A stretch of DNA of 64,000 nt from Ricordea florida (lineage: Eukaryota > Cnidaria > Anthozoa > Corallimorpharia > Ricordeidae), in contig OX453276.1 in NCBI GenBank assembly GCA_949710005.1, forward strand, positions 6,502,377 to 6,566,376, written 5' to 3'. The notes under the pieces are model-generated. The model made no database searches. It saw nothing but the letters and a program-made list of their open reading frames with translations, and was not told where the DNA came from. Shown in pieces: positions 15,801-46,064 of this stretch (position 1 is the stretch's first letter; every line of letters starts with the position of its first letter). Made by a program: the position numbers and the translations under genes.

Positions 15801-17364
15801 AAAGGTGTGGGAAACATTCGGAATGAAAACAATTAGAGATTATCACGATTTATATCTAAAAACAGATGTGCTGCAGCTAGCCGACGTATTCGAGAACTTT
15901 AGGGATGTGTGTATTAATAATTATAGTTTAGATCCCGCCCACTATTTTACATCCCCGGGATTATCTTGGGATGCAATGTTAAAATTAACTAAAGTTAGTT
16001 TGGAATTGTTTACAGACGTTAATATGTTGCTTTTTATTGAGAAAGGGATTAGAGGCGGAACATCCCAAATATCAAAAAGATATGCAAAAGCTAATAACCC
16101 CTATATGACAGATTTTGAAATAAATAAACTTATAAGTTATATTATTTATCTTGACGCGAATAACTTATACGGAGCCGCAATGAGCAAGAAATTACCAAAA
16201 CGCGGATTTAGATGGATTCCAAATGAAGAGCTCGTAAATTGGAGAGACATGTCTTGTATAGTTGAGGTTGATTTGGAATACCCAAAAAATCTTCATGATA
16301 GTCATAAAGATCTGCCTTTAGCACCAGAAAAACTTACCGTTAATAAGGTTAAGAAATTAATACCGAACCTATTAGATAAGAAAAGATATGTAGTTCATCA
16401 CGAAACCCTGAAATTTTATGAAAAACAAGGATTAAAAATAACAAAGATTCATAAGGGAATCAAATTTCAAGAGTCAAAGTGGTTACAGACTTATATCGAT
16501 AGGAATACTGAATTGAGAAAACACGCGAAGAATGACTTTGAAAAGGATTTCTTCAAACTAATGAATAACTCCGTATTCGGAAAAACAATGGAAAATATGA
16601 GAAAAAGGATAGACGTTAGATTGGTTAATAATATAGAATCAGCCAAAAAATTAATAAGAAAACCGAACTTTAATCATTTTACTATCTTTTCTGAGGATCT
16701 AGCCGCCATAAATATGAAGAAAACAGAAATAAGATTTAATAAACCGGTTTACGTGGGGTTTTCCATTTTGGATCTAAGTAAGCAAATAATGTACGATTTT
16801 CATTATAATTATATCAAAGAGAAATATGGAGAAAAAGCCGAATTACTTATGACTGATACCGATAGTCTTGTATATAATATAGAAACGGAAGATTTCTATG
16901 AAGATATAAGTCAAGATGTTCGGGAAAAGTTCGACACTAGCAACTATCCTAAAAATCACAAATCTGGTATTTGGGATGATGCAAACAAAAAAGTAATTGG
17001 CAAGTTTAAGGATGAGTTTGGTGGAAGTATACCTACGGAATTTGTGGGTTTGGGGGCAAAACAATATGCCTTATTAATGGACAACGGTAAAGAGATAAAG
17101 AAGAATAAAGGAACGAAGAAATTAGTTGTCAAGAAAACAATAAGTTTTAATGATTTCAAAAATTGTCTGAATACTAAAGAACCGCAAATGAGATCGCAAA
17201 ATTTAATAGGATCAAAACTACATAATATTTACACAAAAACAGTTAATAAGAAAGCGCTATCTGCTTATGACGATAAGAGAATCATTCAAAAAGACGGAAT
17301 ACATACTCTTCCTTATGGGCATTATCGCACTAAAACAGAATTGGGCGGCAACTCAGTATCATAA
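12820..17364 (+). CDS. polB: Protein-primed family B DNA polymerase
   Basis: Replicates the element from protein-primed ends. 1514 residues from ATG 12820; the frame stays open upstream but has only a TTG. Residues 1-40 form a SAP-like helix pair (GRSEM..K), 75-160 are Pro-rich (PPGTPP), 474-530 are a Cys/Lys cluster (CKNCGCMKKEC), Exo I is DFEG (Asp628), and an endonuclease-VII-like zinc site is CHIC...DHCHLTGKYRGAAH (738-765). Next come Exo II HNLSGYDSH (787), an Asp/His/Cys run (829-850), Exo III YLKTDVLQLADVFE (1012), motif A YLDANNLYG (1112), motif B KLMNNSVFGKT (1246) and motif C DTDS (1346). All polymerase and exonuclease acidic residues are present, so it should be active. The 3' end overlaps the integrase gene tail to tail by 43 bp. 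Confidence 0.95.
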   Translation: MDQLRRELNFKQLTKLLTFYKIPGRSEMTTKEDKAIALGIIPEVINNIQQIIDNRTEIFRTIDNMPRRRANQPQPPLPIPQIRPNLPPLNIPQPIQIPGTPPGSPERFIPTTPPGTPPPNQPRININKYNPKRPSPPKPTRPPPPIPTKPKKQVIKNESVKNTPFLGNVLNKFWDFVKPYIPEKVKNKTEELAKNFIDRYKKANEPKNQPKRTKSKRDYEKEGVRPKTKRLKEEELIIKETTRKFKNGYLKQHVIDGKKGYTIGEFMRKIKPKVMDIINKDKKPKKVKVILSSKFVKSPLQNNQIKEEVEKYFGARPKIITEASDLTKEYDDIIKDIFFEVERFQENTDSGVFQFDSVARFDIGIAPYTVTSGSSYIPTPERLAAKKATINIQNKCEDCGQLSLTEAVFPRKHNRERANNELLENCKKLNFSGIEGAMKLKDFAKFEKQNPYPVNVLKYDEEADKIYTARLSDKCYCKKEEKCKNCGCMKKECKKKQKCKKKDCKKHECEECGCKKCDCNNYECKLCDCKFINLLLITNGEKTHYILVNNASRLLSSEIDDNKHKKHFCFRCFNSFYDERILQEHKEYCDSHGEVKIKMPKNEDGSPKFIYFKNFKNKMRAPFGIYVDFEGQLIPIHTCSPSEIKSFTKNYQMHKASGFCYYIKCFDESILPKDFNICVNYTAKSDDEDVAQIFTEYLERDVRKIFQLIEEKKETFKVYDKKNMSKTDKKEYENATHCHICEREFSEEEDFGKVIDHCHLTGKYRGAAHKICNLKYVIPKFVPVVIHNLSGYDSHLFIKNLGKTKGGMSCLANTDEKYISFSKKILINYDCDHDCDHDFEHDCDCEDEDEKEKPITRTIRFIDSYKFMQFSLSGLVDNLTKCGKCESCKPGECLKRYVKDGKIITFNGVGNCEQCKNCKLLGSMCFSPIDKNMAITKKHFTGEKLKLLLRKGVFPYDYFDRIEKLNETQLPPKEEFFSKLNNHGISDEDYEHAKKVWETFGMKTIRDYHDLYLKTDVLQLADVFENFRDVCINNYSLDPAHYFTSPGLSWDAMLKLTKVSLELFTDVNMLLFIEKGIRGGTSQISKRYAKANNPYMTDFEINKLISYIIYLDANNLYGAAMSKKLPKRGFRWIPNEELVNWRDMSCIVEVDLEYPKNLHDSHKDLPLAPEKLTVNKVKKLIPNLLDKKRYVVHHETLKFYEKQGLKITKIHKGIKFQESKWLQTYIDRNTELRKHAKNDFEKDFFKLMNNSVFGKTMENMRKRIDVRLVNNIESAKKLIRKPNFNHFTIFSEDLAAINMKKTEIRFNKPVYVGFSILDLSKQIMYDFHYNYIKEKYGEKAELLMTDTDSLVYNIETEDFYEDISQDVREKFDTSNYPKNHKSGIWDDANKKVIGKFKDEFGGSIPTEFVGLGAKQYALLMDNGKEIKKNKGTKKLVVKKTISFNDFKNCLNTKEPQMRSQNLIGSKLHNIYTKTVNKKALSAYDDKRIIQKDGIHTLPYGHYRTKTELGGNSVS

Positions 17365-18314
17365 GGAATAACTTGTAATTCTTCGCGAACAAATCCCCGA
17401 TGAGGTCCATCAATTAAATAATATAAAACCGGCTGATTGGGCGAAATTATACTTTTAGAAATATAATAAACTTTGATACTCCAAATAGGATCAGTAGCCC
17501 GCCTTCTTTCTCCACCCTCAAGTTCGCCCGGCGATAATAAATATCTAACTTTAACAATAGGCGGCAATCTAACCTCATCAACCCCTACCACCCGCTGATA
17601 ATTTTTGGGTTCAACATCAACCTCTTTCAGTTTTATAGCTTCATCGGGCTCTTTACCGGTTATTCTCTTTTTCGTATTATTCAAGGTTTTTAGAATATCT
17701 GGTAATCTTTTCACCCATACACGCGATCGATCATCGCCAATCATTTCTTGCGCATATTGATGACTAAATAATCTTTCTCCTAATATTCTATTTGCGTTTT
17801 CAACAAATGCTTGAGCTCTGTGATTACCAGCTTCACTTCTTTGTATCCTAACATTATGGTAATTCATGAGTTTACTAACTTCTCCCATAAATTCTTTCCC
17901 GGGATCAACCATTAAAGTTTTTGGGTATTTCAATCTTCTAGAATATATTTTCTTAAAAGCTTCTGATATCTCTCGACTTTCTTTTGAGGTTAATGCTTCA
18001 GCATCTTTATATCTCGAGGCGATATCAACCACAACTAACGCGTATTTATATGTTTTTCTTCCAACTCTATCATGAGGCAAAAATAATAAATCTGCTTGGT
18101 GAATCTGATTGGGTTTATCCACAGTCCAGTGCGGCCTAGGTATATATTTAGGAGCGGGTAGATAGATTTGCCATATTGCTTGTTTTTGCAACCATTGTTT
18201 TGTTTCATTTTCACTTACTCTAGCCTTCTCAGCCAATTTAGGAATTGCAGAATATCCTTTCCAATATCCTTCAGTTGAATAATATATTTTTGAGAGAATA
18301 TTTTCGTTGCTCAT
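17322..18314 (-). CDS. int: Retroviral-type (DD35E) integrase
   Basis: 330 residues. Inserts linear element DNA into the host chromosome. An N-terminal helical region (residues 1-60) precedes the rve catalytic core. The catalytic triad is Asp75 (QADLLF), Asp137 (MVDPGKEF) and Glu172 (FVENANRIL), a D-x61-D-x34-E spacing. The C-terminal part (GERRRATDPIWS to GPHRGFVREELQVIP) resembles the small beta-barrel/chromo-like tail seen in Polinton integrases. ATG at 18314 is 31 bases from the divergent start at 18346. No frameshift or missing residue seen. Confidence 0.95.
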   Translation of the reverse strand: MSNENILSKIYYSTEGYWKGYSAIPKLAEKARVSENETKQWLQKQAIWQIYLPAPKYIPRPHWTVDKPNQIHQADLLFLPHDRVGRKTYKYALVVVDIASRYKDAEALTSKESREISEAFKKIYSRRLKYPKTLMVDPGKEFMGEVSKLMNYHNVRIQRSEAGNHRAQAFVENANRILGERLFSHQYAQEMIGDDRSRVWVKRLPDILKTLNNTKKRITGKEPDEAIKLKEVDVEPKNYQRVVGVDEVRLPPIVKVRYLLSPGELEGGERRRATDPIWSIKVYYISKSIISPNQPVLYYLIDGPHRGFVREELQVIPYDTELPPNSVLVR

Positions 18315-18345
18315 TTAAAAATAAACAAGTATCTTATAAATTGAA
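18315..18345. promoter_or_regulatory. 31-bp divergent promoter, integrase / micro-ORF
   Basis: All control sequence for two diverging genes must fit here or inside the genes. On the + strand GTATCTTATAAATTG precedes ATG 18346. The opposite strand reads ATTTTTAAATG into the integrase start. The TATCTTATAAATT box is repeated before the capsid gene (18542-18554) and at the equivalent places in element 2. Confidence 0.45.
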
Positions 18346-18528
18346 ATGGTTGAGGAGGGCGAAGAAGAAATAAAATTTACCGAATACCAAATCAACATTA
18401 TGAAAAAAATTATTAGGAAAAAAATTCTATATATGGTAGACGGCGATCAAATTTTTAATATTTTAATTTTAATTCCCAGCGCGAGAGAAGGTTTATTAAA
18501 ACATATTTCCAAGTTAGAAAAGGTTTAA
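18346..18528 (+). CDS. Conserved micro-protein between integrase and capsid genes
   Basis: 60 residues, acidic start (MVEEGEEE), then a basic, helix-prone middle (IMKKIIRKKI) and LIPSAREGLLKHISKLEKV. No known domain recognised. It is considered real because element 2 keeps the same frame, length (59 residues) and nearly the same sequence at the same position (49715-49894), and because it has its own TATCTTATAAATT box. Function unknown; a small virion or regulatory protein is possible. Confidence 0.65.
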   Translation: MVEEGEEEIKFTEYQINIMKKIIRKKILYMVDGDQIFNILILIPSAREGLLKHISKLEKV

Positions 18529-18558
18529 AGGTTAACCAAAGTATCTTATAAATTTACA

Positions 18559-19800
18559 ATGACGTCTGAAAAAATTAATCCAAACAGAATTCCAAAAGAA
18601 CCCTTTGGCTTGAAAGCAGAATCAACCCTGAATAGAATTACTCTAAATCCATCCTCAGCCAGTCCGGAAGAAACATTATACATAAATATTCCAAAACTCG
18701 CAGAGAATTTGGTGATTGTGCCCGGAAGTGTATCTCTTCTATTTGACTTAGATGTTGAGGGTCATGCGAATAATACGGTTGTAAATAATTTGGGCCGTAA
18801 TCTTGTAACAAGACTGAAAGTTCTTTTTGGGGGAGAAACATTGCAAGATACTCAAGGATATGATTTATTTCAAACCTATCACGATTTATTCTTAACCGAA
18901 GAAGAGCGAGAAGATAGATTAAAACAAGGTATTTCTTCTCTAAATATTAGAAAACTTAGAACAAAATCTGGAGACGCAAAAACACAAGATGGAAAAGAAG
19001 TTGTTCTAGCTAATGTTCACGGTTCAAAGTACAGAATACCAATAAATCACCCTATTCTAAACGATCACGGTGTTTTTTATCCGAAAGCGCTGGAAAATCA
19101 TCTTATATTTGAGATTACACTTGCCCCAATCCCTAATATTGTTATTTATTCTGATACAGCTAAAGCACCATCATATTCAATCAAAAACTTAGAGTTAGAA
19201 TATTCTTCAATTTCTAGTGAATACTTAGCCCGCGAGGCTCAGGCGGCTTATCAAGTCGGCAAAGGATTTTTTTATGAAAATGTTACTTTGCACAAAACTT
19301 TTACATTTTCCATTGCTGGAGATGGCGTTATTAATCAGCATATTAATTTACCGAGAAGATCAATGACAGGAATATTGTTTTTGTTTTTATCACCTCAAAC
19401 CCCAGGAGCAAGGGATTCTGAAAATTTTTATAATCCGGGCATATCTTCCGTTGAAATTGATGTTGATGGTGTACCAAATAGAATATACTCTAGGGGAATG
19501 ATTCCTTCCGATCTTTGGGAATCCGTGAAGAAAAGATTTCGTCGGGATGACGGTTTGCAAATTTCTTTGAAAGAAAAAGAATTTTACGCGGATAAGTTTG
19601 CTCTTTGGGTTGATACTAGAACTCATCCAGATAATGGTATTCACGGCGGCGGACTTGCTCTAAATAATACTCATGACGGTGTAAAAATAGAAATTAAAAG
19701 GAAACAAGGCGGAACTGGAACCATAACTTGTCATATGTTTGTCGTGGCTGACGCAATGCTGGAGATTATGAATTCAAGTTTGAGATCAATTAAGTACTGA
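18559..19800 (+). CDS. Putative major capsid protein (double jelly-roll)
   Basis: 413 residues, lacking membrane segments and rich in predicted beta structure. Two halves can be seen: 1-200 (SLLFDLDVEGHANN, LFGGETLQDTQGYDLFQTYH) and 230-413 (INLPRRSMTGILFLF, GGTGTITCHMFVVADAMLEI). Directly upstream of the packaging ATPase, the usual place of the hexon gene in Polinton/adintovirus-like elements. It is the most conserved structural protein between the two elements (about a dozen differences by eye). Major capsid assignment rests on position, length, fold impression and conservation; no structure comparison was run. An abundant non-capsid protein is the alternative. Confidence 0.65.
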   Translation: MTSEKINPNRIPKEPFGLKAESTLNRITLNPSSASPEETLYINIPKLAENLVIVPGSVSLLFDLDVEGHANNTVVNNLGRNLVTRLKVLFGGETLQDTQGYDLFQTYHDLFLTEEEREDRLKQGISSLNIRKLRTKSGDAKTQDGKEVVLANVHGSKYRIPINHPILNDHGVFYPKALENHLIFEITLAPIPNIVIYSDTAKAPSYSIKNLELEYSSISSEYLAREAQAAYQVGKGFFYENVTLHKTFTFSIAGDGVINQHINLPRRSMTGILFLFLSPQTPGARDSENFYNPGISSVEIDVDGVPNRIYSRGMIPSDLWESVKKRFRRDDGLQISLKEKEFYADKFALWVDTRTHPDNGIHGGGLALNNTHDGVKIEIKRKQGGTGTITCHMFVVADAMLEIMNSSLRSIKY

Positions 19801-19857
19801 CTGAAGGGAAGAACCTGACCTAAATTTAAAAAAACATTTAGTTATGATACAAAAATC

Positions 19858-20484
19858 ATGGAAGATTTGCGCGATAAAATACCATTTCATTGTATTATAA
19901 CTGGACCGACAAATTGCGGAAAAACAAAGTACTTAATTGAACAACTCCGAGGTTCTTTCCGGAAAGTTTTTGAATATATTGTTTTAATTTGTCCGACTTA
20001 TTCTAAAAATAAAACTTATCATAATTTTGCTAATAAGGATGAGCGTTTTTTTGTATTATCTCCGGATGCAAGTAACGTAGAGGAGATTAATGAGTTACTA
20101 ACTGATTGTCAAACTTTATTCTCCGGCACAAATACTCTAATAATTTTAGATGATTGCGCCGTTTCTAATGATCTGAAAAAGCGATCAAATAAGTTTATAG
20201 ATTTAGCATTCTCCGGAAGGCATCATGGTTTATCTGTTTGGGTTCTAACCCAGCAATTAACATCAATAGCAAAACCATTTCGAGAAAATGTAGCCTGCGT
20301 TGTTACTTTTCATAATCCGTCGCAGAAAGGCATGAAAATGTTTTTCGAAGATTACGGCGGAGATTTGGATTATGAATTGGGGAAAAAGTTTGTACAACTC
20401 CTGAAAACTGAAAAATATTCTAGATTATGTTTATCTTTGCGTTACCCATTTAATTGCTATTTAGAGATACCCGAAGTGATTTAA
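19858..20484 (+). CDS. A32/FtsK-HerA-type genome packaging ATPase
   Basis: 208 residues. Expected to pump element DNA into capsids. Walker A is GPTNCGKT (residues 16-23), Walker B LIILDD (94-99) and a sensor-type WVLTQQL (128-134). Size and motif spacing match the compact packaging ATPases of Polintons and virophages. The start MEDLRDK was chosen because element 2 keeps it while the upstream bases shift frame. Followed after 7 bases by the next gene. Confidence 0.9.
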   Translation: MEDLRDKIPFHCIITGPTNCGKTKYLIEQLRGSFRKVFEYIVLICPTYSKNKTYHNFANKDERFFVLSPDASNVEEINELLTDCQTLFSGTNTLIILDDCAVSNDLKKRSNKFIDLAFSGRHHGLSVWVLTQQLTSIAKPFRENVACVVTFHNPSQKGMKMFFEDYGGDLDYELGKKFVQLLKTEKYSRLCLSLRYPFNCYLEIPEVI

Positions 20485-20491
20485 CAAAAAG

Positions 20492-21046
20492 ATGACAAAG
20501 CCGGAAGATTACATTGACCAACCGACAGAAAAAACTGACCGACCGGAGGGAGGGCCTGGAAAAAGTGAGGATCTTGAAATCAAACAAGAATCTCTTGCGA
20601 TTCTAGCAGTTCTTGGAACAACAAAGGAATATTTAGGAGCTGATATGAGTCTGGGTGATGTAAAAAAATTATCGGAAAAAGATGTAGAAAAATATTTTAA
20701 TCGTTATCAATCGGTAATGGGTAAGAAAATTAATGGAGGATTGGTAGATTCTTCCCTAGAATTAGTTTCCAAACTTATTTCGTATTTAGTTCCGGTAGAT
20801 GACATAGATGCTCTTTGCGATGATTTGAAGAAAGATAATTTGGTTAATCGAGAATTAACAAACTTTGTAGGTCTCTTGGCATTAAAAGGAGGAAGACTGA
20901 CAGCACTTGCTAGCGGGATATTCCAGGTTGCTAAACACGTTAAATTCAACAAAAATCAACAAAAATCAAGAGAAGAACCAGTAAATGGTAGCACAACTAG
21001 TCAGGAAACTAAGCAATCTACTGAAGGTGTTGATACTGTGTATTAA
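20492..21046 (+). CDS. Conserved protein after the ATPase, function unknown
   Basis: 184 residues. Hydrophilic ends flank a conserved middle with SLGDVKKLSEKDVEKYFNRY, GGLVDSSLELVSKLISY and LKGGRLTALASGIFQVAKHV. Helical, with a mildly hydrophobic C-terminal helix. Seven bases after the ATPase stop, so probably co-transcribed. The element 2 counterpart (185 residues) is close in the core and variable in the tails. No family recognised; a minor virion or assembly protein is a guess. Confidence 0.75.
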   Translation: MTKPEDYIDQPTEKTDRPEGGPGKSEDLEIKQESLAILAVLGTTKEYLGADMSLGDVKKLSEKDVEKYFNRYQSVMGKKINGGLVDSSLELVSKLISYLVPVDDIDALCDDLKKDNLVNRELTNFVGLLALKGGRLTALASGIFQVAKHVKFNKNQQKSREEPVNGSTTSQETKQSTEGVDTVY

Positions 21047-21083
21047 ACAGATCTAAAAACTTATTTGTTGCATCTAAATAACA

Positions 21084-21512
21084 ATGTCTGAACAAAATGA
21101 GCAAAACTCTGAGCGAATTACTGCTGATCCAGTACCTGAGAATACTGATACTAAAAAGAAGGATAAGGATCCTAAAAAGGTCGCAGCGGGAAAGAAATTA
21201 GCGGAATATAATAAAAAAGCAAAAGAAGCATTGGCAAGGGAGATGAAAAGAGAGGAAAAAATAAAACAGGAAGAAGAGCCAAATGAAAATACATATAGTG
21301 AAGCAAAATCGTGGCTTCCAGAGATATCTTTTACTACTGTTTTATCCGTTGTCGGACTTGGATTTACAGCAATTGATCTTTTTATGAGGTATAAGGAAAA
21401 AGCTCGGACTGAATATTCAAATAGGATAGCTGATTTATCACAAGTACCACAAACACCGCAACCAAAAAAGATACCATTTTCTGCAACCCCAAAATCTTTG
21501 GGAATGGAATAA
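21084..21512 (+). CDS. Single-pass membrane protein with charged N-terminus
   Basis: 142 residues. Residues 25-75 are very charged (DPKKVAAGKKLAEYNKKAKE, then EEKIKQEEE), a transmembrane helix follows at about 83-102 (TVLSVVGLGFTAIDLFMRY), and a Pro-rich tail ends in ATPKSLGME. Its own box, GATCTAAAAAC, ends 24 bases before the ATG. Counterpart in element 2: 137 residues with identical tail. Function unknown. Confidence 0.75.
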   Translation: MSEQNEQNSERITADPVPENTDTKKKDKDPKKVAAGKKLAEYNKKAKEALAREMKREEKIKQEEEPNENTYSEAKSWLPEISFTTVLSVVGLGFTAIDLFMRYKEKARTEYSNRIADLSQVPQTPQPKKIPFSATPKSLGME

Positions 21513-21558
21513 CTGAATAAAGTTATTTAAAAGTTTCTCAATGGTACAGTAAAAAATT

Positions 21559-21777
21559 ATGTCGACAGAAAACAAACTTGTGAAAACTGTAACTGATTCA
21601 GCTGTGGTTATCGGATTAAGCGCGGGGGTAGGCTATGTGGCAAAAAAGATGATGAAAGAATCCTTTTTGAGTGATCCATCCATGAGTATTACAAATTACG
21701 CAAAATGGGTTGTGGTATTATCCGGAAGCATGTATCTTAAAACATATTTAGAGGATCAAAAGATTTTACCAAAATAA
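21559..21777 (+). CDS. Small two-helix membrane protein
   Basis: 72 residues with hydrophobic segments at about 14-30 (AVVIGLSAGVGYVAKK) and 45-60 (WVVVLSGSMYLKTYL). Nearly identical in element 2 (WVAVISGS the main difference). ATTTAAAAG box about 30 bases upstream. A holin-like or virion membrane role is possible, unproven. Confidence 0.75.
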   Translation: MSTENKLVKTVTDSAVVIGLSAGVGYVAKKMMKESFLSDPSMSITNYAKWVVVLSGSMYLKTYLEDQKILPK

Positions 21778-21781
21778 AATT

Positions 21782-22174
21782 ATGGCAGCAATAGCGATGA
21801 TGATTGGCGGGGCCATCTTGAATGCAACAGCATTTACTGGTGGAAATTATCTTGCAAAATATTTATCAGGGCGCAATGAGGATACAGAAAAAATACGACA
21901 CGACAAAGCAATGGAAAAATATCAAAGAGATTACCAAGAATATCAGGAAAAAAGGCAAAAAATGCTTGATTGGAAAATGAAAAGAAAAGATGAAAAATAT
22001 CAGGCATCAAAAAATATTTCTGCTACAAATCAGGCTTTTGAATTGTACGCTCAAATGAATGAACCCAAATTCACTGATTATTACAAACCAAGTAATGATC
22101 AAAAGACTGGTGAAATGGTATATGTCGGAGCGGGGATGATGGGATTAGGATATGCAATAAGTAAAGTATTATAA
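21782..22174 (+). CDS. Small protein with hydrophobic ends and charged coiled middle
   Basis: 130 residues: glycine-rich hydrophobic N-terminus (MIGGAILNATAFTGGNYLAK), charged helical middle (KIRHDKAMEKYQRDYQEYQE), then PKFTDYYKPSNDQ and a hydrophobic GAGMMGLGYAISKVL C-terminus. Starts 4 bases after the preceding stop; in element 2 the two genes overlap by one base (TAATG). No family recognised. Confidence 0.75.
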   Translation: MAAIAMMIGGAILNATAFTGGNYLAKYLSGRNEDTEKIRHDKAMEKYQRDYQEYQEKRQKMLDWKMKRKDEKYQASKNISATNQAFELYAQMNEPKFTDYYKPSNDQKTGEMVYVGAGMMGLGYAISKVL

Positions 22175-22362
22175 TGTTATGTAACTTGTAATCCAGAAAT
22201 TAGAATAAGTTAAATAACATAATTAAAGTATTCGTATACCATATAATTCCTCAGTTATCATAATTTTTACCACATTTTTTTCTTTTTCTTCAAAATCATC
22301 AATTTTTCTTTTATTTCCGACTCAAGTTAGTCTAAAGACTTCTTACTGTTGAGTAAAAAATC
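22175..22362. pseudogene. Remnant of a lost FCDFIEE-family gene and its hairpin
   Basis: Element 2 has a minus-oriented (relative to the capsid block) gene of 156 residues here. In element 1 only its borders remain: a degenerate form of the convergent hairpin (TGTTATGTAAC...GTTAAATAACA, 22175-22219), and on the other strand AAAAATTGATGATTTTGAAG (about 22282-22302) where element 2 has AAAAATTGATATTTAAAAAG. The frame between is broken by stops, so the gene has been deleted or has decayed. Confidence 0.6.
22331..22340 (+). promoter_or_regulatory. Putative structural-gene promoter box TCTAAAGACT
   Basis: Ends 23 bases before ATG 22363. The same box with the same spacing precedes other structural genes here (GATCTAAAAAC 21050-21060; ATTTAAAGATA 23586-23596; AATCTAAAGATG 25902-25913) and their element 2 counterparts (45511-45520, 44457-44467, 43751-43760, 42081-42090, all on the - strand). 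Confidence 0.55.
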
Positions 22363-23583
22363 ATGGCGGAATATATACCATTAAAAGATTTACCAGGAGA
22401 TAATGATGAGGATGGGGATGATGATAATGAAGACTGGGATTGGGATGATACAACTTTCCAACCCACAAACACATCTACAAACCCCATAGAATATCCCGGT
22501 TATGGTGAGGATGAAGTAAGAAGACGAGAAGAATGGGATATTCCATCTGAAAGAATTAATTTGGGCGATGAGGATTATGATAGAAGGGTAGAAGCAGCCC
22601 AATATCTAAAACGCTATTTTCCTGAATTCGATCCGAAGAATGCATCATTTAATGTTGAATTTGGAGAAGATGGCAGTATAATCGGGAGATTAAGTAATAG
22701 GTCAAAAGCCGCAACACATATCATACTTGACAAAGATGGTAATCTTAGGATCGAAGATTTGCCAAAAGGAATGAGAAAAGAACTGGGCGCAGATTATGAA
22801 ACAATGTTTGAAAAATATAATAATGCCGCTTCAGAATTAAAACAGGTTGGTGAAAAAATTAAGGAATTAGATAATGCATTGCAAGGATTTAAAGCAACAG
22901 CAGAAGTATATCCCCTAGAGATTGAACGATATGCGGAAAGAGAAAAAGAACTTAGGGAATTCATTGAGAGACAACAGTCACAAAAAGCAGAGACTAAAAG
23001 CCTTTTCGATCAAACCGTTAAACAGAATATAGAATTAAAAATACAAGCGGAAAAACTTTTGGAAGAGGTAAAATTAAACAAAGAAGAAATAGATAAATAC
23101 GAGAAGGGTAAATCAAATGAAACAAAATTAAAACAAAGCAATGAACGATTAAAATCTGAGGTTGATAAATTAAGAGAACAGCTTAGAAATAAAGAAATTT
23201 CAAACGCAGAACGATTATCAGATATTGAGGACCGAAAAGATGAAATATTTAAAAATTTGCCGTTACGGGAGAAACTAAAATATATATTCAAAAAATATGG
23301 TTTTACAGTTTTTGCTGTTCTAAGCGCGGTTGGTGTGGTAATTGGAGTTATAGTTTCTAATCTTTCAAAGGGTTTATCTGCTTTGGGGAAAGGAGTGGGA
23401 AATGGTTTGAAAACTATTGGTAAAAAACTGGGTGAAATATTGCCGGGGATGGTTGGCGCAATAGTTAGCTTTCTTTTCAAAACCGCGGGGCAGGTTGTTG
23501 GATTTTTAGGTGAGAATGCTTGGCTTTTGATAATGGCTGTAGTTCTATATTTTGTGGAAAGTATAAAAAGGAAGAGAAAGTAA
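22363..23583 (+). CDS. Coiled-coil membrane protein with invariant C-terminal module
   Basis: 406 residues. Acidic N-terminus (DNDEDGDDDNEDWDWDD), a segment near 70-130, a long coiled coil at about 145-290, then a hydrophobic C-terminal module: helix 1 at about 314-333 (FAVLSAVGVVIGVIVSNL), Gly/Lys-rich GVGNGLKTIGKKLGEILPGM, helix 2 at about 362-382 and helix 3 at about 387-401 (WLLIMAVVLYFVESI), basic end KRKRK. The counterpart in element 2 shares the C-terminal module almost residue for residue but has an unrelated-looking, shorter N-terminus. Likely a virion membrane-associated protein; function unknown. Confidence 0.75.
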   Translation: MAEYIPLKDLPGDNDEDGDDDNEDWDWDDTTFQPTNTSTNPIEYPGYGEDEVRRREEWDIPSERINLGDEDYDRRVEAAQYLKRYFPEFDPKNASFNVEFGEDGSIIGRLSNRSKAATHIILDKDGNLRIEDLPKGMRKELGADYETMFEKYNNAASELKQVGEKIKELDNALQGFKATAEVYPLEIERYAEREKELREFIERQQSQKAETKSLFDQTVKQNIELKIQAEKLLEEVKLNKEEIDKYEKGKSNETKLKQSNERLKSEVDKLREQLRNKEISNAERLSDIEDRKDEIFKNLPLREKLKYIFKKYGFTVFAVLSAVGVVIGVIVSNLSKGLSALGKGVGNGLKTIGKKLGEILPGMVGAIVSFLFKTAGQVVGFLGENAWLLIMAVVLYFVESIKRKRK

Positions 23584-23621
23584 CAATTTAAAGATAACAT
23601 GCCGTTCAGTAAAAACACAAT

Positions 23622-24245
23622 ATGGCTGACTACAATGGAAATCTTTATCCTCAATTACCTAATAATAATGCCCAAACTCAAAAGGGAGAAAGCACAATCA
23701 ATTTCAGATTACAGAAATCAAGTGAAGTTTTGCAAAATCTCGAGAAGGAAATTAAACATTACGAAGAAGTGAGGAAAAAATATAATAGAGCAAGAGGAAT
23801 ATGCACGAAAATTAGTGTTTCTGGAGGATTTGTTTCAGTTCTTCTATCAGCCAGCGGATTAGGAACTTCTCTCACAGGTTTAGGAGCAATAGTTGGCGTA
23901 CCTTTAGGTGTGGTTGGGGGTGTTTTTGGGGTTTTCTCAATCGTATTTGGTTTTGCATCCAAGAATCTTTCTGGGAAAGTTAGTAAACATGAGCAAACAG
24001 TTGCCATTGCAAAATCAAAATTAAACACCATTAACGATTTAGTCTCAAAAGCTCTGAAAGATAATGAAATATCCGATCAAGAATTCTCCATAATTCTGGC
24101 GGAATTGGAAAAGTTTCAAAAACTGAAACAAGAAATACGACAAAAATTCAGAAAAGATTCGGAAAAAAACTTCGACATGAGTATAATAAGGAAGAAAGTA
24201 CGAGAAGATCTATTAAAAGAACTTATCGGAGAGAAAGGACATTAA
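23622..24245 (+). CDS. Membrane protein with long Gly/Val-rich hydrophobic core
   Basis: 207 residues. Helical N-terminal region (LEKEIKHYEEVRKKYNRARG), a hydrophobic stretch at about 68-112 (SGLGTSLTGLGAIVGVPLGV and onward), then KVSKHEQTVAIAKSKLNTIN and a charged helical tail. Element 2 keeps KHEQTV and ISDQEFS. ATTTAAAGATA box 26 bases upstream. Function unknown; a membrane-active virion protein is possible. Confidence 0.75.
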   Translation: MADYNGNLYPQLPNNNAQTQKGESTINFRLQKSSEVLQNLEKEIKHYEEVRKKYNRARGICTKISVSGGFVSVLLSASGLGTSLTGLGAIVGVPLGVVGGVFGVFSIVFGFASKNLSGKVSKHEQTVAIAKSKLNTINDLVSKALKDNEISDQEFSIILAELEKFQKLKQEIRQKFRKDSEKNFDMSIIRKKVREDLLKELIGEKGH

Positions 24246-24359
24246 AACTTGTATATGAAAAAACAGAGGTTGGTTGTAATTGTTTTGCTGGAGTTAATTA
24301 ATTTTACATCTTATTCTTCGCTGATTTAAAGCTCAAAAATTGAGAAACAAAAGAATAAG

Positions 24360-25886
24360 ATGTTATTTAGCGATTTCAAATCAAAATACCCAAAAGCAAA
24401 CTTGGGAAAATTCACATTCGTCAATGACTCATTCGGAGGATATGTTAAATGGAATGTTAATGGAGTAACGGTTATGTCTGATGATGATCCTTCTGGAAAA
24501 ACATGGACCGCAAATCTTTCTAATAATTTGAAAACATTATTATGGGAAGATTTGGGGTTAGAAAATAAAGTTAAGGTAAGTTCATTTCCCAAAAGTTTAA
24601 CATTTACAAGCAAAACATATCCAATACCTGGAGTTAGATTCGATGAATTTACAAACGATGTGACAAAAATGCTGACCGAACTGGATATATACGTTACAGA
24701 TAAAAAGAAATTCACTGCAAATATGAGAAACATATTTAAATCACAAGTTGTAACATTTAATTCAGCAAAGGAATGTAAAAGATGGTTGAGTAAGCCTGAT
24801 ATTAATTATTGGCCCCAGCAACTTAACTTTGCGGTTTGGTGCGCAACATCTGGTTGTGGGATAAGTCTTTTTGAAAGCCTAAATTATCCCAAAGTTATTA
24901 GAAGTTTTTTCATATTTCACATATACTTTACAATAAGAAGAATAATATATGAATTAAATGTACCATTGCCCGACGAACAAACTTTTTCAATAAAAAATAA
25001 TTCATATGATAAAGTTGCATATAATCGATTGTGTAAAGAATTTGGGATTAGTAATAATTCTGACTTTAGGTGGAAGGGCGGAAGAAATCATGGTTTGGGT
25101 GATATATTTATTTATTACAGCTCGGGAGGAAATGAAAATTTATATATTGTAAGAAATTATGATCATGATGCAAATACTTGGCCAGGCCAAAATAAATTTT
25201 CTGACGAAGGTTATAAAGATGGAGATGGAAATAAAATCTCGTTTATCAGAAATGATCTATTTAGTGATTTCAAATATGCTTGGTTTATTCCCGCGGAAGG
25301 ACATGGGCACACCAACGCGGGGCTTGGAAGAATAAATCGATCCGCAGAGGCTTTTGTTTACTGCATATTAGGATCACAAGTTAATACAAGAAACCCAATT
25401 TATGGCGACGGCGGTGGAGCAATAGAAACACAACAAGAATTCAAAACCCTATTTGAGAGTAGTGTAAAAGAAAATGATATTTCTAAATCTATTCAAAATT
25501 ACCAAAAATCTGTGCAGGAAACTAAATTACGGCTTGATTTGGCTGTTGCTCCGGGTGTTTGGTTAATGCCAAGTAATATGATCATAAACACGGAGAGCGT
25601 GGTTGGGTATAATAATAAACTCAAGAAAGCCACTGAAGATATGAATTTTGGAGTAAATAATGCATTAAATATTGAAACAAAAAATGTCGGAATACCTAAT
25701 AGTTTAGGAACATCAAAGGTTTTATTAAATACTAATCCTCAACCAATGAAACCCAAATCAAATGAAAAGGAGGAAACTGGAGAAGGGGAAGAACAAGTTA
25801 GTAATATAGAAACATCTCCTCATCAAAATAATCTTATTGTTTTAGGGATTGGCGGGGCATTATTATCCTGGTTTTTGTTTCGCTAA
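24360..25886 (+). CDS. Large conserved protein with C-terminal membrane anchor
   Basis: 508 residues. No signal peptide. Conserved blocks: WNVNGVTVMSDDDPSGKTWT near 35-55, LNFAVWCATSGCGISLF near 156-172, HIYFTIRRIIYELNVPLP near 180-200, AWFIPAEGHGHTNAGLGRIN near 310, and TESVVGYNN near 415. Pro/Glu-rich linker and one C-terminal transmembrane helix (LIVLGIGGALLSWFLFR). Second-largest product after the polymerase and conserved in element 2 (538 residues, with an extra loop before NHGAGDIFIDY). Family not recognised; a surface or vertex protein anchored in a membrane is a reasonable guess. Confidence 0.75.
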   Translation: MLFSDFKSKYPKANLGKFTFVNDSFGGYVKWNVNGVTVMSDDDPSGKTWTANLSNNLKTLLWEDLGLENKVKVSSFPKSLTFTSKTYPIPGVRFDEFTNDVTKMLTELDIYVTDKKKFTANMRNIFKSQVVTFNSAKECKRWLSKPDINYWPQQLNFAVWCATSGCGISLFESLNYPKVIRSFFIFHIYFTIRRIIYELNVPLPDEQTFSIKNNSYDKVAYNRLCKEFGISNNSDFRWKGGRNHGLGDIFIYYSSGGNENLYIVRNYDHDANTWPGQNKFSDEGYKDGDGNKISFIRNDLFSDFKYAWFIPAEGHGHTNAGLGRINRSAEAFVYCILGSQVNTRNPIYGDGGGAIETQQEFKTLFESSVKENDISKSIQNYQKSVQETKLRLDLAVAPGVWLMPSNMIINTESVVGYNNKLKKATEDMNFGVNNALNIETKNVGIPNSLGTSKVLLNTNPQPMKPKSNEKEETGEGEEQVSNIETSPHQNNLIVLGIGGALLSWFLFR

Positions 25887-25936
25887 TATTTTGATTAAAT
25901 GAATCTAAAGATGAACGTGATGTAATCAAAACAAAA

Positions 25937-26572
25937 ATGCTGAGTATTACAATATATGATTCTGAAACCCGGGTTTATTTAGATCCGCCGCTGAAAAATC
26001 TTCGGGAGATACAGCTCCTGGATTGCAATTTAAAGACCAAAAAGTTGATTAATTTCAAGGACCACCAGACATTATTCAATGATAAGAATAAATTCTTCAT
26101 AAAAATTCAATCCGGTACATATTCTCTTCGTAATTTTCAATCAGTCTTTCTTAATGATCCTGAAGTGGAAAAAATAACAATAATTGAGACTGATACTGTT
26201 GACTATCTTTATTCAAATAAGAACTTCAAAATTGGCCTTTCTAGTGGGTTGGCGATTGGTTTAGGAGTTCCTGAAGTTATAAATCCTGGTAAATTATATC
26301 CAATAAATATACAAATTAGAGAGCCTTTGAGACTTATGTGCAGTATAGTGGATAATAAGTCATCATATACGAATAACGCCAAATATGAAGAACTTGTGAA
26401 ACTCGCGCCCTCGCACCTACTCGCAAACATACCATCAAAGGATTACCCAACAATTCCGGTTCAAAAATATGAGAATCCCATAAACCACTTTGATTTAAGT
26501 ATCTTAGACAACGAATGGAAAAAACTTGATCTGAAGGGTTCACCCATAACTTTCAGTTTAAGATTTAGATAA
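25937..26572 (+). CDS. Putative penton / minor capsid protein
   Basis: 211 residues, no membrane helix, beta-rich. Features such as LREIQLLDCNL near 20, a Gly-Thr-Tyr turn (IQSGTYSLRNF here, IIPPGTYTL in element 2) near 55-65, and a final strand ITFSLRFR resemble the single-jelly-roll minor capsid proteins of Polinton/virophage-like viruses, which pair with the major capsid protein at vertices. Last gene of the structural block, ending five bases before a hairpin. Assignment is by pattern and position, not by structure. Confidence 0.5.
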   Translation: MLSITIYDSETRVYLDPPLKNLREIQLLDCNLKTKKLINFKDHQTLFNDKNKFFIKIQSGTYSLRNFQSVFLNDPEVEKITIIETDTVDYLYSNKNFKIGLSSGLAIGLGVPEVINPGKLYPINIQIREPLRLMCSIVDNKSSYTNNAKYEELVKLAPSHLLANIPSKDYPTIPVQKYENPINHFDLSILDNEWKKLDLKGSPITFSLRFR

Positions 26573-26577
26573 TTTTT

Positions 26578-26609
26578 TGTTATGTAACCAGTAATTAGGT
26601 TATATAACA
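26578..26609. terminator. Hairpin between convergent genes (element 1)
   Basis: TGTTATGTAACC and GGTTATATAACA, 12-base arms with one G-T pair, 8-base loop AGTAATTA. Lies between the stops of the putative penton gene (26572) and the FCDFIEE gene (26623). On the reverse strand it is identical to the hairpin at 46065-46096 of element 2. Candidate bidirectional transcription-end or RNA-processing signal. Confidence 0.65.
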
Positions 26610-26622
26610 TAATTAGATAATA

Positions 26623-27348
26623 TTAATCTTCATCGCCCCATACCTCTTCTTTCAAAAACTTTAACTCTTCAAAATCAATACACCAATCTAAATATCTAGT
26701 TGGGCGCCAAGCAACAGCCATTAGTTCATCATGTAAGTCTTTATAGAATTTACGTTTGTGTATTGCTTTCATTAAATCATCATGTAAATCTTCGTAAAAT
26801 TTATTTTTATGCTCTAACTTATGAGGATTTATTTCTATCATTATATCAATAAATTCAACAATAAAATTATTATCAAACTTATTAATATCACATTCCTTAT
26901 CATAATAACCAAAATACCCTGGCACCCCCTCATTAGCAATTTGGTGAAGAAATTCCTCATAAGCGGCATGATCATCATTTTCAATGCCATTTTTACAATT
27001 TAATGTATCTTTACGAAACTTAAATTTAATCCATTCATGTTCAAACCATTCATTATATCGTTCATTTGCACAATTTAATGAATCTTTTACAAACTCATCA
27101 ACGCATATCCCATTAACAAAAAATTTTGCCTCAGTTTGATAGTTAATAACATTTCCATTATATTCATCATCATTATAAATAATGCCAAATTCAATATCAC
27201 TATTTTCAACAATAAAACCTCGAATTTTTGGTATAATTTTTAACAAATCCTTTTTAACTTCTTCTATAAAATCGCAAAACCCCAGTTCTTTTTCATTATG
27301 GTAATTTAAATAAAAATTTTCTTCCAATCTATATATTTGCCTTTCCAT
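26623..27348 (-). CDS. FCDFIEE-family protein, long form
   Basis: 241 residues, acidic, low in known motifs. N-terminal signature NEKELGFCDFIEEVKKDLL is shared with both family members of element 2. The C-terminal third has a tandem duplication: HKNKFYEDLHDDLMKAI followed by HKRKFYKDLHDELMAVA, then RPTRYLDW and an acidic end. ATTGATATTTAAAAAG box (27372-27392) about 25 bases upstream. Lies among the genes read against the capsid block, so probably an accessory or host-interaction protein. Function unknown. Confidence 0.75.
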   Translation of the reverse strand: MERQIYRLEENFYLNYHNEKELGFCDFIEEVKKDLLKIIPKIRGFIVENSDIEFGIIYNDDEYNGNVINYQTEAKFFVNGICVDEFVKDSLNCANERYNEWFEHEWIKFKFRKDTLNCKNGIENDDHAAYEEFLHQIANEGVPGYFGYYDKECDINKFDNNFIVEFIDIMIEINPHKLEHKNKFYEDLHDDLMKAIHKRKFYKDLHDELMAVAWRPTRYLDWCIDFEELKFLKEEVWGDED

Positions 27349-27371
27349 CTTTTATTTTTTATTTTATATTT

Positions 27372-27392
27372 TCTTTTTAAATATCAATTTTG
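27372..27392 (-). promoter_or_regulatory. Putative accessory-gene promoter, ATTGATATTTAAAAAG
   Basis: On the - strand CAAAATTGATATTTAAAAAG precedes the FCDFIEE gene by about 25 bases. The same box precedes its two relatives in element 2 (40635-40655 and 45542-45561). Confidence 0.55.
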
Positions 27393-27442
27393 TTATTAAA
27401 CCAAAATAAGGGTTTCATAACACAATTACCCATTCTTCGCTT

Positions 27443-27901
27443 TTATTTTAAATCATAAAATAATTTCATTCTGCAATCCTTGCAAGAGGATTTTTGCTTA
27501 TCATGTTCGCATATTTGTGATCCAACACATTCTACACATTGTTGTTTTTGTTTATTATGTCTGCAAATATGCGAACCTCCACATTCCTTACAATGTTGTT
27601 TTTGTTTATTATGTACGCATATTTGCGATCCTCCACATTCCTTACAGTGATATTTATATTTATTATGTATCAAGCAATTATACCCATTACATTCGCTGCA
27701 AAATTTTTTTATTTTTCCATGATCACAAATAATTCTACTAGTAAGGGCAACTTTTTCAATTAAATCAGCAATTTCCTCATCTTTGTGTTTTGTAATTTCA
27801 TCAATTAGTTCTTGCTTATTCATTTTTGCTCTTCCTTTTATTTCAAAGTCTTTCGCTATTATTCTTATTTCGTAAATATATAATTTTCTTAGCTGATCCA
27901 T
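27443..27901 (-). CDS. SAP-like plus zinc-repeat protein
   Basis: 152 residues from the ATG at 27901 (the longer frame starts with TTG). Residues 1-45 form a SAP/Rho-N-like helical unit (IYEIRIIAKDFEIKGRAKM) shared with the polymerase N-terminus. Residues 60-140 are five repeats of about 18 residues with C-x-H-x6-C-x2-C spacing (CVHNKQKQHCKEC), expected to bind zinc. Similar Cys/His repeat proteins occur in large DNA viruses and algae. Promoter, start codon and first five codons lie in the inverted repeat and are the same as those of the polymerase. Probably a nucleic-acid binding regulator; the DNA end is an attractive target. Confidence 0.8.
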   Translation of the reverse strand: MDQLRKLYIYEIRIIAKDFEIKGRAKMNKQELIDEITKHKDEEIADLIEKVALTSRIICDHGKIKKFCSECNGYNCLIHNKYKYHCKECGGSQICVHNKQKQHCKECGGSHICRHNKQKQQCVECVGSQICEHDKQKSSCKDCRMKLFYDLK

Positions 27902-28505
27902 AATTACTTTTGTAAGAAATATCAAATCTTTAAGCCGCTTTTCAAATTTTTAATCCGCCTGTTCCAGAAATCCTTGCCAAAATTCCCGGCTTTTATGCTG
28001 CTGATCAAAATTCACGTGTCCCCGCTTGGTGATGGGTTCATCAAAACTTTGCGGAGGCTTCAACAATACCAAGCGGCGGCTTGGCTAGTGCTTTGTGAAG
28101 GCTTGAGGGCTTGACAAGGTCTTTTGGGTCTTAGGGATTTCGACAAGTATTTATTGGCTTTTATGCTGCTGGTTAAATTCCTGATCAAATTTTGGAAACC
28201 AATTTAGCTTATAAGCTAGAAAATACTTGTCAAATTTCCTGTGTTCCAGAATTCCCGGCTTGGTATCAGGTTCGCCAAAACTTTGCAGAGGCTTCAACAA
28301 TACCTAGCGACAGCTTGGCTAGTGCTTTGTGAAGACTTGGGGGTTTGACTAGGTCTTCTGGGTCTTAGGAATTCGACAAGTATTTTTTTGTCTTTTATGC
28401 TGCTGGCTAAATTCCTGATCAAATTTTGGAAACCAATTTAGCTTATAAGCTAGAAAATCCTTGTCAAATTTCCTGTGTTCCAGAGCCGCAGTTTTCTCCC
28501 TCTCT
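27886..28505 (-). repeat. Element 1 right terminal inverted repeat, 620 bp
   Basis: Reverse complement of 12216-12835; carries the same 234-bp internal duplication. Its inner end holds the promoter and start of the zinc-repeat gene. Its outer end reads GTTTTCTCCCTCTCT and serves as the pyrimidine tract in front of the PREP exon. Confidence 0.92.
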
Positions 28506-28510
28506 TTTTA
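28506..28510. repeat. Target-site duplication of element 1, right (TTTTA)
   Basis: TTTTA after the terminal CTCCCTCTCT. Its last A and the next G form the AG of the PREP acceptor at 28512. Confidence 0.8.
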
Positions 28511-28511
28511 G

Positions 28512-28616
28512 GAACACTGGACTACTTTGGTTGAAGAAGATGAAAAAGATGTATTAGAGTGGGCCGCCTGTGTTAAGCAAAACTTGCTCGTTCTTTGCTA
28601 TCTTCACGATGTGAAG
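28512..28616 (+). CDS. PREP: PREP exon (i): directly after element 1, [11 protein letters not shown]
   Basis: Encodes [21 protein letters not shown]...LCYLHDVK, matching EKDVLEWVACV and LCYLHDVK of PREP; donor GTAAAG at 28617. The acceptor is unusual: its AG (28510-28511) consists of the last base of the TTTTA target duplication and the single remaining intron base. The pyrimidine tract before it is the terminus of element 1. Confidence 0.93.
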
Positions 28617-39420: not shown

Positions 39421-39516
39421 GATCACTATTTGCGGTGGCTCCAATGGTGGACTACTAGTTGGTGCCTGCATTAACCAAAGACCAGATCTGTTTGGCTGTG
39501 CGGTTTCTCAAGTTCC
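39421..39516 (+). CDS. PREP: PREP exon (n): nucleophile elbow GGSNGG (catalytic Ser)
   Basis: Encodes [21 protein letters not shown] and [17 protein letters not shown] is the nucleophile elbow carrying the catalytic Ser (Ser554 in human numbering). The donor GTAAGT at 39517 is followed within nine bases by the left end of element 2; the target duplication GTAGC occupies donor positions +5 to +9. Confidence 0.95.
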
Positions 39517-39525: not shown

Positions 39526-40137
39526 AGAGAGAGGGAAAACTACGGTTTTAGGACACAGGAATTTTGACAAGGATTTTCTAGCTTATAAGCTAAATTGGGT
39601 TTTGAAAATTAACCAGGAATTTAATCAGGAATTTATAGGGTAATATTTTGCTGATTAAGTTTTGGGAGCTAGGACAATGCTAGCATAGATCAGTAGAATG
39701 CTAAGTTTCTGCAAAGTTTCAGCCAAGCCCACTCGCCAAGAGGGGCCGACAGGCGGAGCGAGCTGCACGAGCGGAGGGCGAGACTGCCCTTGGCTGGCTA
39801 AGTCTCAGCAAAGTTTCGGCAAAGCCTCATGCCAAGTCTGGGATAAATTTTGGGACACAGGAATTTTGACAAGGATTTTCTAGCTTGCTAAGTTTCTGCA
39901 AAGTTTCAGCCAAGCCCACTCGCCAAGAGGGGCCGACAGGCGGAGCGAGCTGCACGAGCGGAGGGCGAGACTGCCCCGTCTGGCTAAGTCTATGCAAAGT
40001 TTCGGCAAAGCTGCATGACAAGTCTGGGACGAGTTTTGGGACACAGGGATTTATTGGGTAATATTTCTCGGACAGGGGGGAAAAATTTGAAAAGTGGTTT
40101 AAAGATTTGATATTTTCTACAAAAGTAATTATGGATC
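39526..40137 (+). repeat. Element 2 left terminal inverted repeat, 612 bp
   Basis: Matches 55429-56040 inverted, ending at ATGGATC. Contains a direct duplication with GCTAAGTTTCTGCAAAGTTTC at about 39700 and 39888, including a GC-rich segment (GGCGGAGCGAGCTGCACGAG). Tip, TTTTCTAGCTTATAAGCTAA and the inner promoter region are shared with element 1. Confidence 0.92.
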
Positions 40138-40580
40138 GGTTAAGAGAATTATATATTTTTGAACTAAGAATAATAGCGAAAGATCTTGAAATTAAAGGAA
40201 GAGCAAAAATGAGTAAGCAAGAACTAATTGATGAAATTTCAAATTTTAAAGATGAGGAAATTACTGATTTAATTGAAAAAGTTTTCCCTATTAGCAGAAT
40301 TATTTGTGATCATGAAAAAATAAAAAAATTTTGTAGCGAGTGTAATGGGTATAATTGTGAGCATAATAAATATAAATATCGTTGTAAGGAATGTGCAGGA
40401 TCGCAAATATGTGAACATAATAAACAAAAACAACATTGCAAAGAATGCGTTGGATCGCAAATATGTAAACATAATAAACAAAAACAACAATGTAAAGAAT
40501 GCAGAGGATCACAAATTTGTGAACATGACAAGCAAAAAGCTTCTTGCAAGGCTTGCAGAATGAAATTATTAAATTATTAA
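40131..40580 (+). CDS. SAP-like plus zinc-repeat protein (element 2)
   Basis: 149 residues from ATG 40131. N-terminal SAP-like unit (IFELRIIAKDLEIKGRAKM) and five C-x-H-x6-C-x2-C repeats (CEHNKQKQHCKEC). Close relative of the element 1 protein at 27443-27901. The start codon is in the inverted repeat, so its promoter is the same as that of the polymerase at the other end. Confidence 0.8.
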   Translation: MDRLRELYIFELRIIAKDLEIKGRAKMSKQELIDEISNFKDEEITDLIEKVFPISRIICDHEKIKKFCSECNGYNCEHNKYKYRCKECAGSQICEHNKQKQHCKECVGSQICKHNKQKQQCKECRGSQICEHDKQKASCKACRMKLLNY

Positions 40581-40634
40581 AAATAAAAGCTAAGAATGAG
40601 TGGGTGTGTTATGAAACCTTTATTTTGGTTCAAT

Positions 40635-40655
40635 AAAAAATTGATATTTAAAAAG
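40635..40655 (+). promoter_or_regulatory. Putative accessory-gene promoter (element 2, first)
   Basis: AAAAAATTGATATTTAAAAAG ends 23 bases before ATG 40679; the same box as at 27372-27392 and 45542-45561. Confidence 0.55.
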
Positions 40656-40678
40656 ATAAAATATATAATAAAAAAAAT

Positions 40679-41374: not shown

Positions 41375-41377
41375 TTA

Positions 41378-41409
41378 TGTTATATAACCCAATTACTGGT
41401 TACATAACA
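41378..41409. terminator. Hairpin between convergent genes (element 2, left)
   Basis: TGTTATATAACC, loop CAATTACT, GGTTACATAACA. Between the stops of the FCDFIEE gene (41374) and the putative penton gene (41425). Differs from the other intact hairpins by one loop base. Confidence 0.65.
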
Positions 41410-41424
41410 AAAGTCCTCGTTAAT

Positions 41425-46060: not shown

Positions 46061-46064
46061 CTTT

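What the first reader, a model, noticed from the sequence alone, without database searches (positions are those of the whole stretch)
28490..28515. Element 1 ends one base from a PREP exon and supplies its polypyrimidine tract
The host acceptor before insertion was TTTTTCTCTTTTTAG|GAACAC. After insertion the exon is preceded by the viral terminus GTTTTCTCCCTCTCT, then the duplicated TTTTA and G. The viral tip replaces the host pyrimidine tract and the AG is rebuilt from the target duplication, so a 16-kb virus insertion could stay neutral to splicing.
Basis: partly seen in the sequence, partly recalled or inferred. Interest (0 to 1): 0.9.

Follow-up and report, generated by a model that had tools for sequence, protein, structure and literature searches.

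The report
Virus insertion splits PREP splice acceptor
A recently inserted 16-kb virus-like element sits six bases before an exon of a coral-like animal's PREP gene and its end happens to supply a good pyrimidine tract, but the insertion leaves the splicing branch point on the far side, so normal splicing is possible but not shown, and the position looks like chance rather than targeting.

Summary
Element 1 (12216-28505, Maverick/Polinton-like) is followed by a 5-bp target duplication TTTTA, one host G, and PREP exon 9 (28512); the duplication, not the element, is one base from the exon. Viral tip plus TTTTAG scores as a stronger acceptor core (14.5) than the empty site (11.6). Neutrality is only partly supported. 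The right junction has no good branch point within reach, and AGs 20 and 28 nt upstream would frameshift PREP. One native PREP acceptor (exon 16) has an equally A-free zone, so neutrality is weakened, not excluded. The pyrimidine tip is a family trait, present in the 38 other copies examined. At those 38 sites, 1 acceptor edge and 2 donor edges were found (random 5.3% and 6.4%), so splice-site targeting is not supported, though the donor test is insensitive. A second, opposite element abuts the exon 15 donor, a geometry that could favour circular RNA of exons 9-15. No RNA data were available.

The parts
10750..10845 (+). PREP exon 8 (donor ATG|gtgagt)
   Evidence: tblastn and spliced frame
12190..12202 (+). 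host branch-point candidates TTCAC (A12193) and TTGAT (A12201), left on the far side of the element
   Evidence: sequence; scores 3.3 and 3.5, (recalled consensus weights)
12211..12215 (+). left copy of target duplication TTTTA
12216..28505 (+). Element 1, Maverick/Polinton-like provirus, 16,290 bp, tips (AG)3//(CT)3
   Evidence: terminal repeats; integrase rve and A32-like ATPase; DNA polymerase motifs (motif meaning recalled)
12216..12221 (+). AGAGAG: element start that gives the left junction new acceptor AGs
   Evidence: scores 5.9, 6.8, 7.3
12216..12835 (+). left terminal inverted repeat of Element 1
   Evidence: 0 mismatches with 27886-28505
27886..28505 (+). right terminal inverted repeat of Element 1
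28482..28491 (+). competing AGs (CCAG at 28482-28483, GCAG at 28490-28491), 28 and 20 nt before exon 9; both frameshift
28492..28505 (+). viral pyrimidine tip TTTTCTCCCTCTCT
   Evidence: 18/18 pyrimidine together with TTTT of the duplication
28506..28511 (+). right copy of TTTTA plus host G: rebuilt AG
28512..28616 (+). PREP exon 9, one match in the assembly
   Evidence: Peptidase_S9_N 1.7e-06
39421..39516 (+). PREP exon 15 (donor CC|gtaagtagc)
   Evidence: Peptidase_S9 5e-10
39526..56040 (-). Element 2, opposite orientation, 16,515 bp, tips (AG)4//(CT)4, duplication GTAGC at 39521-39525 and 56041-56045; starts at +10 from exon 15
   Evidence: 88% identical to Element 1 over 9.6 kb

Best explanation
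A young Maverick/Polinton-like provirus inserted, presumably by its own retroviral-type integrase, with a 5-bp duplication, into the pyrimidine tract of PREP intron 8. Shown by sequence: the acceptor is split, with branch-point candidates and host tract on the left and AG and exon on the right. Shown: the element's family-wide (CT)n end gives the right half a new tract, and its 5'-AG gives the left half a new AG. Inferred: exon 9 at 28512 is still recognised, because its tract and AG are the strongest pair nearby, probably using a weak viral branch adenosine; its efficiency is reduced, with some use of the AGs at -28/-20 or of the left junction. Inferred: the position is a chance draw, and the pyrimidine tip exists for the element's own replication or integration, not for PREP.
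For: Junction sequence and duplication. Core acceptor 14.5 versus 11.6 at the empty site; left-junction AGs 5.9-7.3; CCAG at -28 scores 8.0. Branch-point scan. The tip does not depend on the site: both 60-nt tips equal Element 1's in 20 of 20 fetched copies (partly by construction, as these headed an identity-ranked list), and the last 12 or more bases are all pyrimidine in the 18 of 18 Element 2-like copies too, with varied sequence. Element 1's tip before 5000 random PREP intronic sites gives a core of 7.4 or more in 13.7%, against 1.2% without it and 0.04% with the purine strand; 4 of 40 junction faces of the 20 copies carry such a core. No targeting seen: 1 of 38 acceptor edges and 2 of 38 donor edges, random 5.3% and 6.4%. 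(AG)3//(CT)3 ends are a published Maverick motif (PMC8097293, section 7 read). First-AG rule and bypass of AGs nearer than 12-15 nt: PMC1431707 passages. AG depletion from branch point +8 onward: PMC10655562 passages.
Against: No RNA was examined. The acceptor matrix is trained on 19 sites of one gene (leave-one-out 0.2-14.7) and the branch-point weights are recalled human-like preferences. Of 19 native acceptors, exons 15 and 16 also lack an A at 12 nt or more within the AG-free zone, so full neutrality is not excluded. Two elements abutting splice sites of one gene is unlikely under uniform insertion (about 4e-5 to 6e-5, post hoc), and a further copy sits on what looks like a start codon; both sit uneasily with pure chance. 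The targeting test misses weak donors: Element 2's own site scores only 1.3 in it.
Confidence: 0.66

Rival explanations
1. One reading: the rebuilt tract and AG with a cryptic viral branch point splice exon 9 as well as before.
For: Second strongest core acceptor of 20; exon 16 of the same gene has an equally A-free zone; PREP frame open, exon 9 with one match in the assembly.
Against: Best reachable branch adenosine scores 0.4; better ones lie before AGs that the first-AG rule would use. The insertion is young (0 mismatches in 620 nt), so an open frame does not show function.
Confidence: 0.22
2. Acceptor trap: host branch point, host tract and the element's AG at the left junction capture exon 8, giving a truncated PREP with a viral tail.
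For: Complete acceptor set within 24 nt at the left junction; it would be transcribed well before the right junction (inference); the three possible reading frames stop within the element.
Against: AAG and GAG acceptors score lower than the right TAG (5.9-7.3 versus 14.5). Sense-strand AATAAA in Element 1 is not enriched (36, expected 41).
Confidence: 0.2
3. The integrase targets splice sites or exon edges.
For: Both elements of the window abut PREP splice sites; a further copy sits on the apparent start codon of a P450 gene.
Against: 1 of 38 and 2 of 38 other sites have acceptor or donor edges, not above random; duplications share no clear motif. One other site lies in a piece of another Maverick's ATPase gene (shared peptides seen by eye), one in a weakly transposase-like frame (0.058, below cut-off). 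Limit: the donor test misses Element 2 itself.
Confidence: 0.04
4. Assembly or chimera artefact.
For: Only one assembly was seen.
Against: Duplications at both elements and 5-bp ones at 34 of 38 further copies, open PREP frame, near-identical repeats.
Confidence: 0.02

Closest known systems
Maverick/Polinton elements (vertebrate set of PMC8097293; passages and section 7 seen)
   Same: Size 16-17 kb, hundreds-of-base terminal repeats, rve integrase, family B polymerase motifs, A32-like ATPase, (AG)3//(CT)3 ends.
   Different: Target duplication is 5 bp here, 6 bp there; capsid match is below cut-off and no protease was found.
Introners (PMC9860276, passages)
   Same: Transposon end and target duplication together supply parts of a splice site.
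   Different: Introners create a new intron inside an exon; here a 1.4-kb intron already existed and the insertion split its acceptor.
Inverted repeats flanking exons that promote circular RNA (PMC8516420, passages)
   Same: Two oppositely oriented, mutually complementary repeats flank exons 9-15.
   Different: Repeats are 16-kb proviruses directly abutting the two splice sites; no circular RNA was tested.

Membership tests
Maverick/Polinton | retroviral-type (rve) integrase | tested here: met
   PF00665 2.1e-09 and 2.5e-09, above cut-off, both elements
[quoted passage not shown]
   1522- and 1521-aa frames with DTDS and NNLYG motifs (motif meaning recalled); no Pfam polymerase match
Maverick/Polinton | A32-type packaging ATPase | tested here: met
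   PF04665 6.8e-12, 45.8 bits against cut-off 22.8 (Element 1 only)
Maverick/Polinton | double jelly-roll major capsid protein | tested here: inconclusive
   Capsid_N 17.2 bits, below cut-off 24; no structure predicted
Maverick/Polinton | adenoviral-type protease | tested here: inconclusive
   no match among the 19 frames scanned; not every frame was scanned
Maverick/Polinton | long terminal inverted repeats with (AG)3//(CT)3 ends | tested here: met
   Element 1: 620 nt, 0 mismatches; end motif as in PMC8097293
Maverick/Polinton | 6-bp target duplication (vertebrate Mavericks) | tested here: not met
   5 bp at Elements 1 and 2 and at 34 of 38 other sites; others 10 bp, 6 bp and two with none. 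PMC12220804 passages give 5-6 bp for Polinton-like viruses, so I say Maverick/Polinton-like and do not file it as a vertebrate-type Maverick.
Introner | creates a new intron in a previously continuous exon | tested here: not met
   a 1,371-nt intron 8 remains when the element is set aside
circular-RNA-promoting inverted repeats | back-spliced exon 15 to exon 9 RNA | not testable with these tools
   no RNA data

The most novel reading that the evidence does not exclude
The two proviruses act together on PREP RNA. Element 1 (6 nt before exon 9) and Element 2 (from +10 after exon 15) are opposite and about 88% complementary over 9.6 kb, and their abutting ends pair in a co-fold. This brings the exon 15 donor to the exon 9 acceptor and favours a 764-nt circular RNA of exons 9-15, or skipping of them (frameshift, losing the exon with GGSNGG, the recalled active-site serine motif). 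In competition, Element 1's own perfect 620-bp repeats form a hairpin that hides the decoy AGAGAG and brings host branch point and exon 9 AG back together, so the insert loops itself out.
Probability: 0.12. Interest if true: 0.68.

Novelty: new member of a known kind. Interest (0 to 1): 0.42.

Why it matters
It gives a natural case of a 16-kb insertion between branch point and AG of a conserved gene with one copy of the exon in the assembly, so it tests how far a donated pyrimidine tract can stand in for a whole acceptor. More generally, (AG)n//(CT)n Maverick ends carry a pyrimidine tract outward in either orientation and an AG inward, so insertions can create acceptor-like junctions (4 of 40 faces here).

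Tried and rejected
Splice-site targeting: not supported on 38 other sites, though the window's pair stays odd and the donor test is insensitive. Shared target motif: none clear; only a weak A at -6 (20 of 36) and T at 0 (16 of 36). Element as introner: rejected (pre-existing intron). Relatives in viral contigs: none in five scans; one 5-kb bacterial-bin contig in genome contigs, not used. Alternative allele of exon 9: none, one match in the assembly. Residual terminal repeats elsewhere in the window: none by blastn. My first argument that the A-free zone is unique to exon 9 was dropped: exon 16 shares it and exon 15 nearly does. My label of 7.4 as the median native score (notebook) was wrong: it is the 13th of 19. 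A motif pattern for relatives' junction matched none of 10 because it was too strict, and was replaced by alignment. Genes near other insertions: 57 of 183 open frames listed, from 18 of 20 sites, gave a 7tm_1 match by L010, a Spermine_synt_N match in a member I did not identify, and four weak ones. A notebook remark that the L010/L011 site is reverse-transcriptase-like was by eye and is not supported (no Pfam match). Published reports of Maverick insertions at splice sites: none seen (listings and abstract starts; passages of a few).

Full report
WHAT IS THERE. The window lies in a 538-Mb assembly (G000, contig C5). PREP (prolyl endopeptidase) runs through it on the + strand. I placed 20 exons by tblastn with a recalled human PREP and by splice signals; the first exons lie outside what I mapped. 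The spliced frame is open to a stop and matches a solved prolyl endopeptidase over 640 residues (9q5g, 1079.5 bits). The most similar named relatives listed are corals (Acropora palmata 81%, Desmophyllum pertusum 78%), so the host is probably a stony coral or close to one; this is inference. Two 16-kb elements sit in introns 8 and 15 of this count, in opposite orientation, 88% identical over 9.6 kb with weaker matches elsewhere.

THE JUNCTION. Element 1 runs 12216-28505. Its terminal repeats are 620 nt with no mismatch. The target duplication is TTTTA, followed on the right by one host G and exon 9. The element itself ends six bases from the exon; the duplication ends one base from it. Element 2 (39526-56040) has terminal repeats of 612 nt with one mismatch, duplication GTAGC, and begins at +10 from the end of exon 15, leaving the donor GTAAGT intact.

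THE FAMILY. Both elements encode an rve integrase, and Element 1 an A32-like ATPase. Both have a frame of about 1520 aa with DTDS and NNLYG motifs, with an endonuclease VII-like stretch seen in Element 1. The major capsid match is below cut-off. Ends are (AG)3//(CT)3 and (AG)4//(CT)4; (AG)3//(CT)3 is a published Maverick end motif, in a set where duplications are 6 bp (PMC8097293, passages and section 7). I fetched host flanks of 20 further copies with Element 1's tip and 18 with tips like Element 2's. Exactly 5-bp duplications occur in 19 of 20 and 15 of 18 (where the script preferred 5-bp solutions among tip placements); exceptions are one of 10 bp, one of 6 bp and two with none. Both samples head identity-ranked hit lists (40 of 650 and 40 of 735 candidates scored) and so lean to close or young copies. 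Four single-end hits were not fetched.

SPLICING. I scored acceptors with a matrix from the 19 other PREP acceptors. Empty site 11.6; right junction 14.5, above 18 of 19 native sites and above all 1341 other AGs scored in host introns. By this core measure the viral tip improves the acceptor. The branch point changes the picture. The host candidates A12193 and A12201 stay at the left junction. There the host tract runs straight into the element's AGAGAG, making AGs that score 5.9, 6.8 and 7.3 with a candidate branch point 16-28 nt away. At the right junction the AG-free zone is 18 nt and all pyrimidine. Any branch adenosine must lie in or before GCAG (-20) or CCAG (-28, score 8.0). Splicing at either AG shifts the frame. 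The A of CCAG could work, since AGs nearer than 12-15 nt to a branch point can be bypassed (PMC1431707 passages), but it scores 0.4 on a recalled scale where native bests are 0.8-6.1. Against my own criticism, native exon 16 has no A in its 19-nt zone and exon 15 none at 12 nt or more. I therefore expect retained but reduced use of 28512, and cannot exclude neutrality or a trap.

WHY THE TIP IS PYRIMIDINE-RICH. It is a family property, not a PREP adaptation. All 40 tips of the 20 other copies match Element 1 over 60 nt, partly by construction of the list; the 18 Element 2-like copies vary in sequence but likewise end in a pyrimidine run of at least 12 nt. Because the repeats are inverted, the right end reads as pyrimidine on the upper strand in either orientation. 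Short tandem repeats at ends fit protein-primed replication with sliding back (recalled). Four of 40 junction faces of the 20 copies carry a core of 7.4 or more, near the 13.7% found when the tip is set before random PREP intronic sites.

CHANCE OR TARGETING. In this gene a 5-bp intronic target lies within 4 nt of an exon edge with P = 0.008; two such events have P about 4e-5 to 6e-5, post hoc. Across 38 other sites, a scored acceptor edge with open frame occurs at 1 and a donor edge at 2, against 5.3% and 6.4% of random positions. The acceptor test finds Element 1 (11.6); the donor test is weak, since Element 2's own site scores only 1.3. One further copy sits on the ATG of what looks like the first exon of a P450 gene: the two downstream frames match Pfam p450 (78.5 and 192.1 bits), the first exon itself has no Pfam match, so its assignment is by position and by eye. 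I conclude that splice-site targeting is not supported, with the pair in PREP left as an unexplained coincidence.

MOST NOVEL READING. Element 1 abuts the exon 9 acceptor and Element 2 the exon 15 donor, in opposite orientation. Their abutting 300-nt ends pair in a co-fold at -265.8 kcal/mol, and Element 1's own ends pair at -239.3 with AGAGAG inside the stem (no shuffled control, kinetics ignored). Complementary repeats in flanking introns can promote back-splicing (PMC8516420 passages), and hairpins can shorten the distance between branch point and acceptor in yeast (PMC12350175 passages). Exons 9-15 total 764 nt, not a multiple of 3. No RNA was tested.

Noticed in passing
39516-39526 and 56040-57029: Element 2 begins at +10 from the exon 15 donor; its right tip plus GTAG makes another strong acceptor-like site (10.6) 984 nt before exon 16.
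   Followed up: yes
L028, L029, L050 (G000:C5:6201184-6217577): A copy of the Element 1 family sits on the apparent start codon of a cytochrome P450 gene; the duplication AATGG repeats the ATG after the element. The first exon itself has no Pfam match.
   Followed up: partly
G000:C5: Contig C5, about 7% of the assembly, holds 11 of the 40 element copies with both flanks read, four of them within 6.20-6.56 Mb.
   Followed up: no
L026/L027: One copy has an apparent 10-bp duplication CCGTTGCCAG instead of 5 bp.
   Followed up: no
L038/L039: One copy appears nested in the ATPase gene of another Maverick (shared peptides seen by eye).
   Followed up: no
61747-63158: Satellite of alternating 115/117-nt units beyond the PREP stop codon.
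   Followed up: no
12796-17364: The long polymerase-like frame carries an endonuclease VII-like stretch (phrog_423, residues 730-781).
   Followed up: no
12237-12702 and 28019-28484: Each terminal repeat of Element 1 holds two copies of a roughly 234-nt unit.
   Followed up: no
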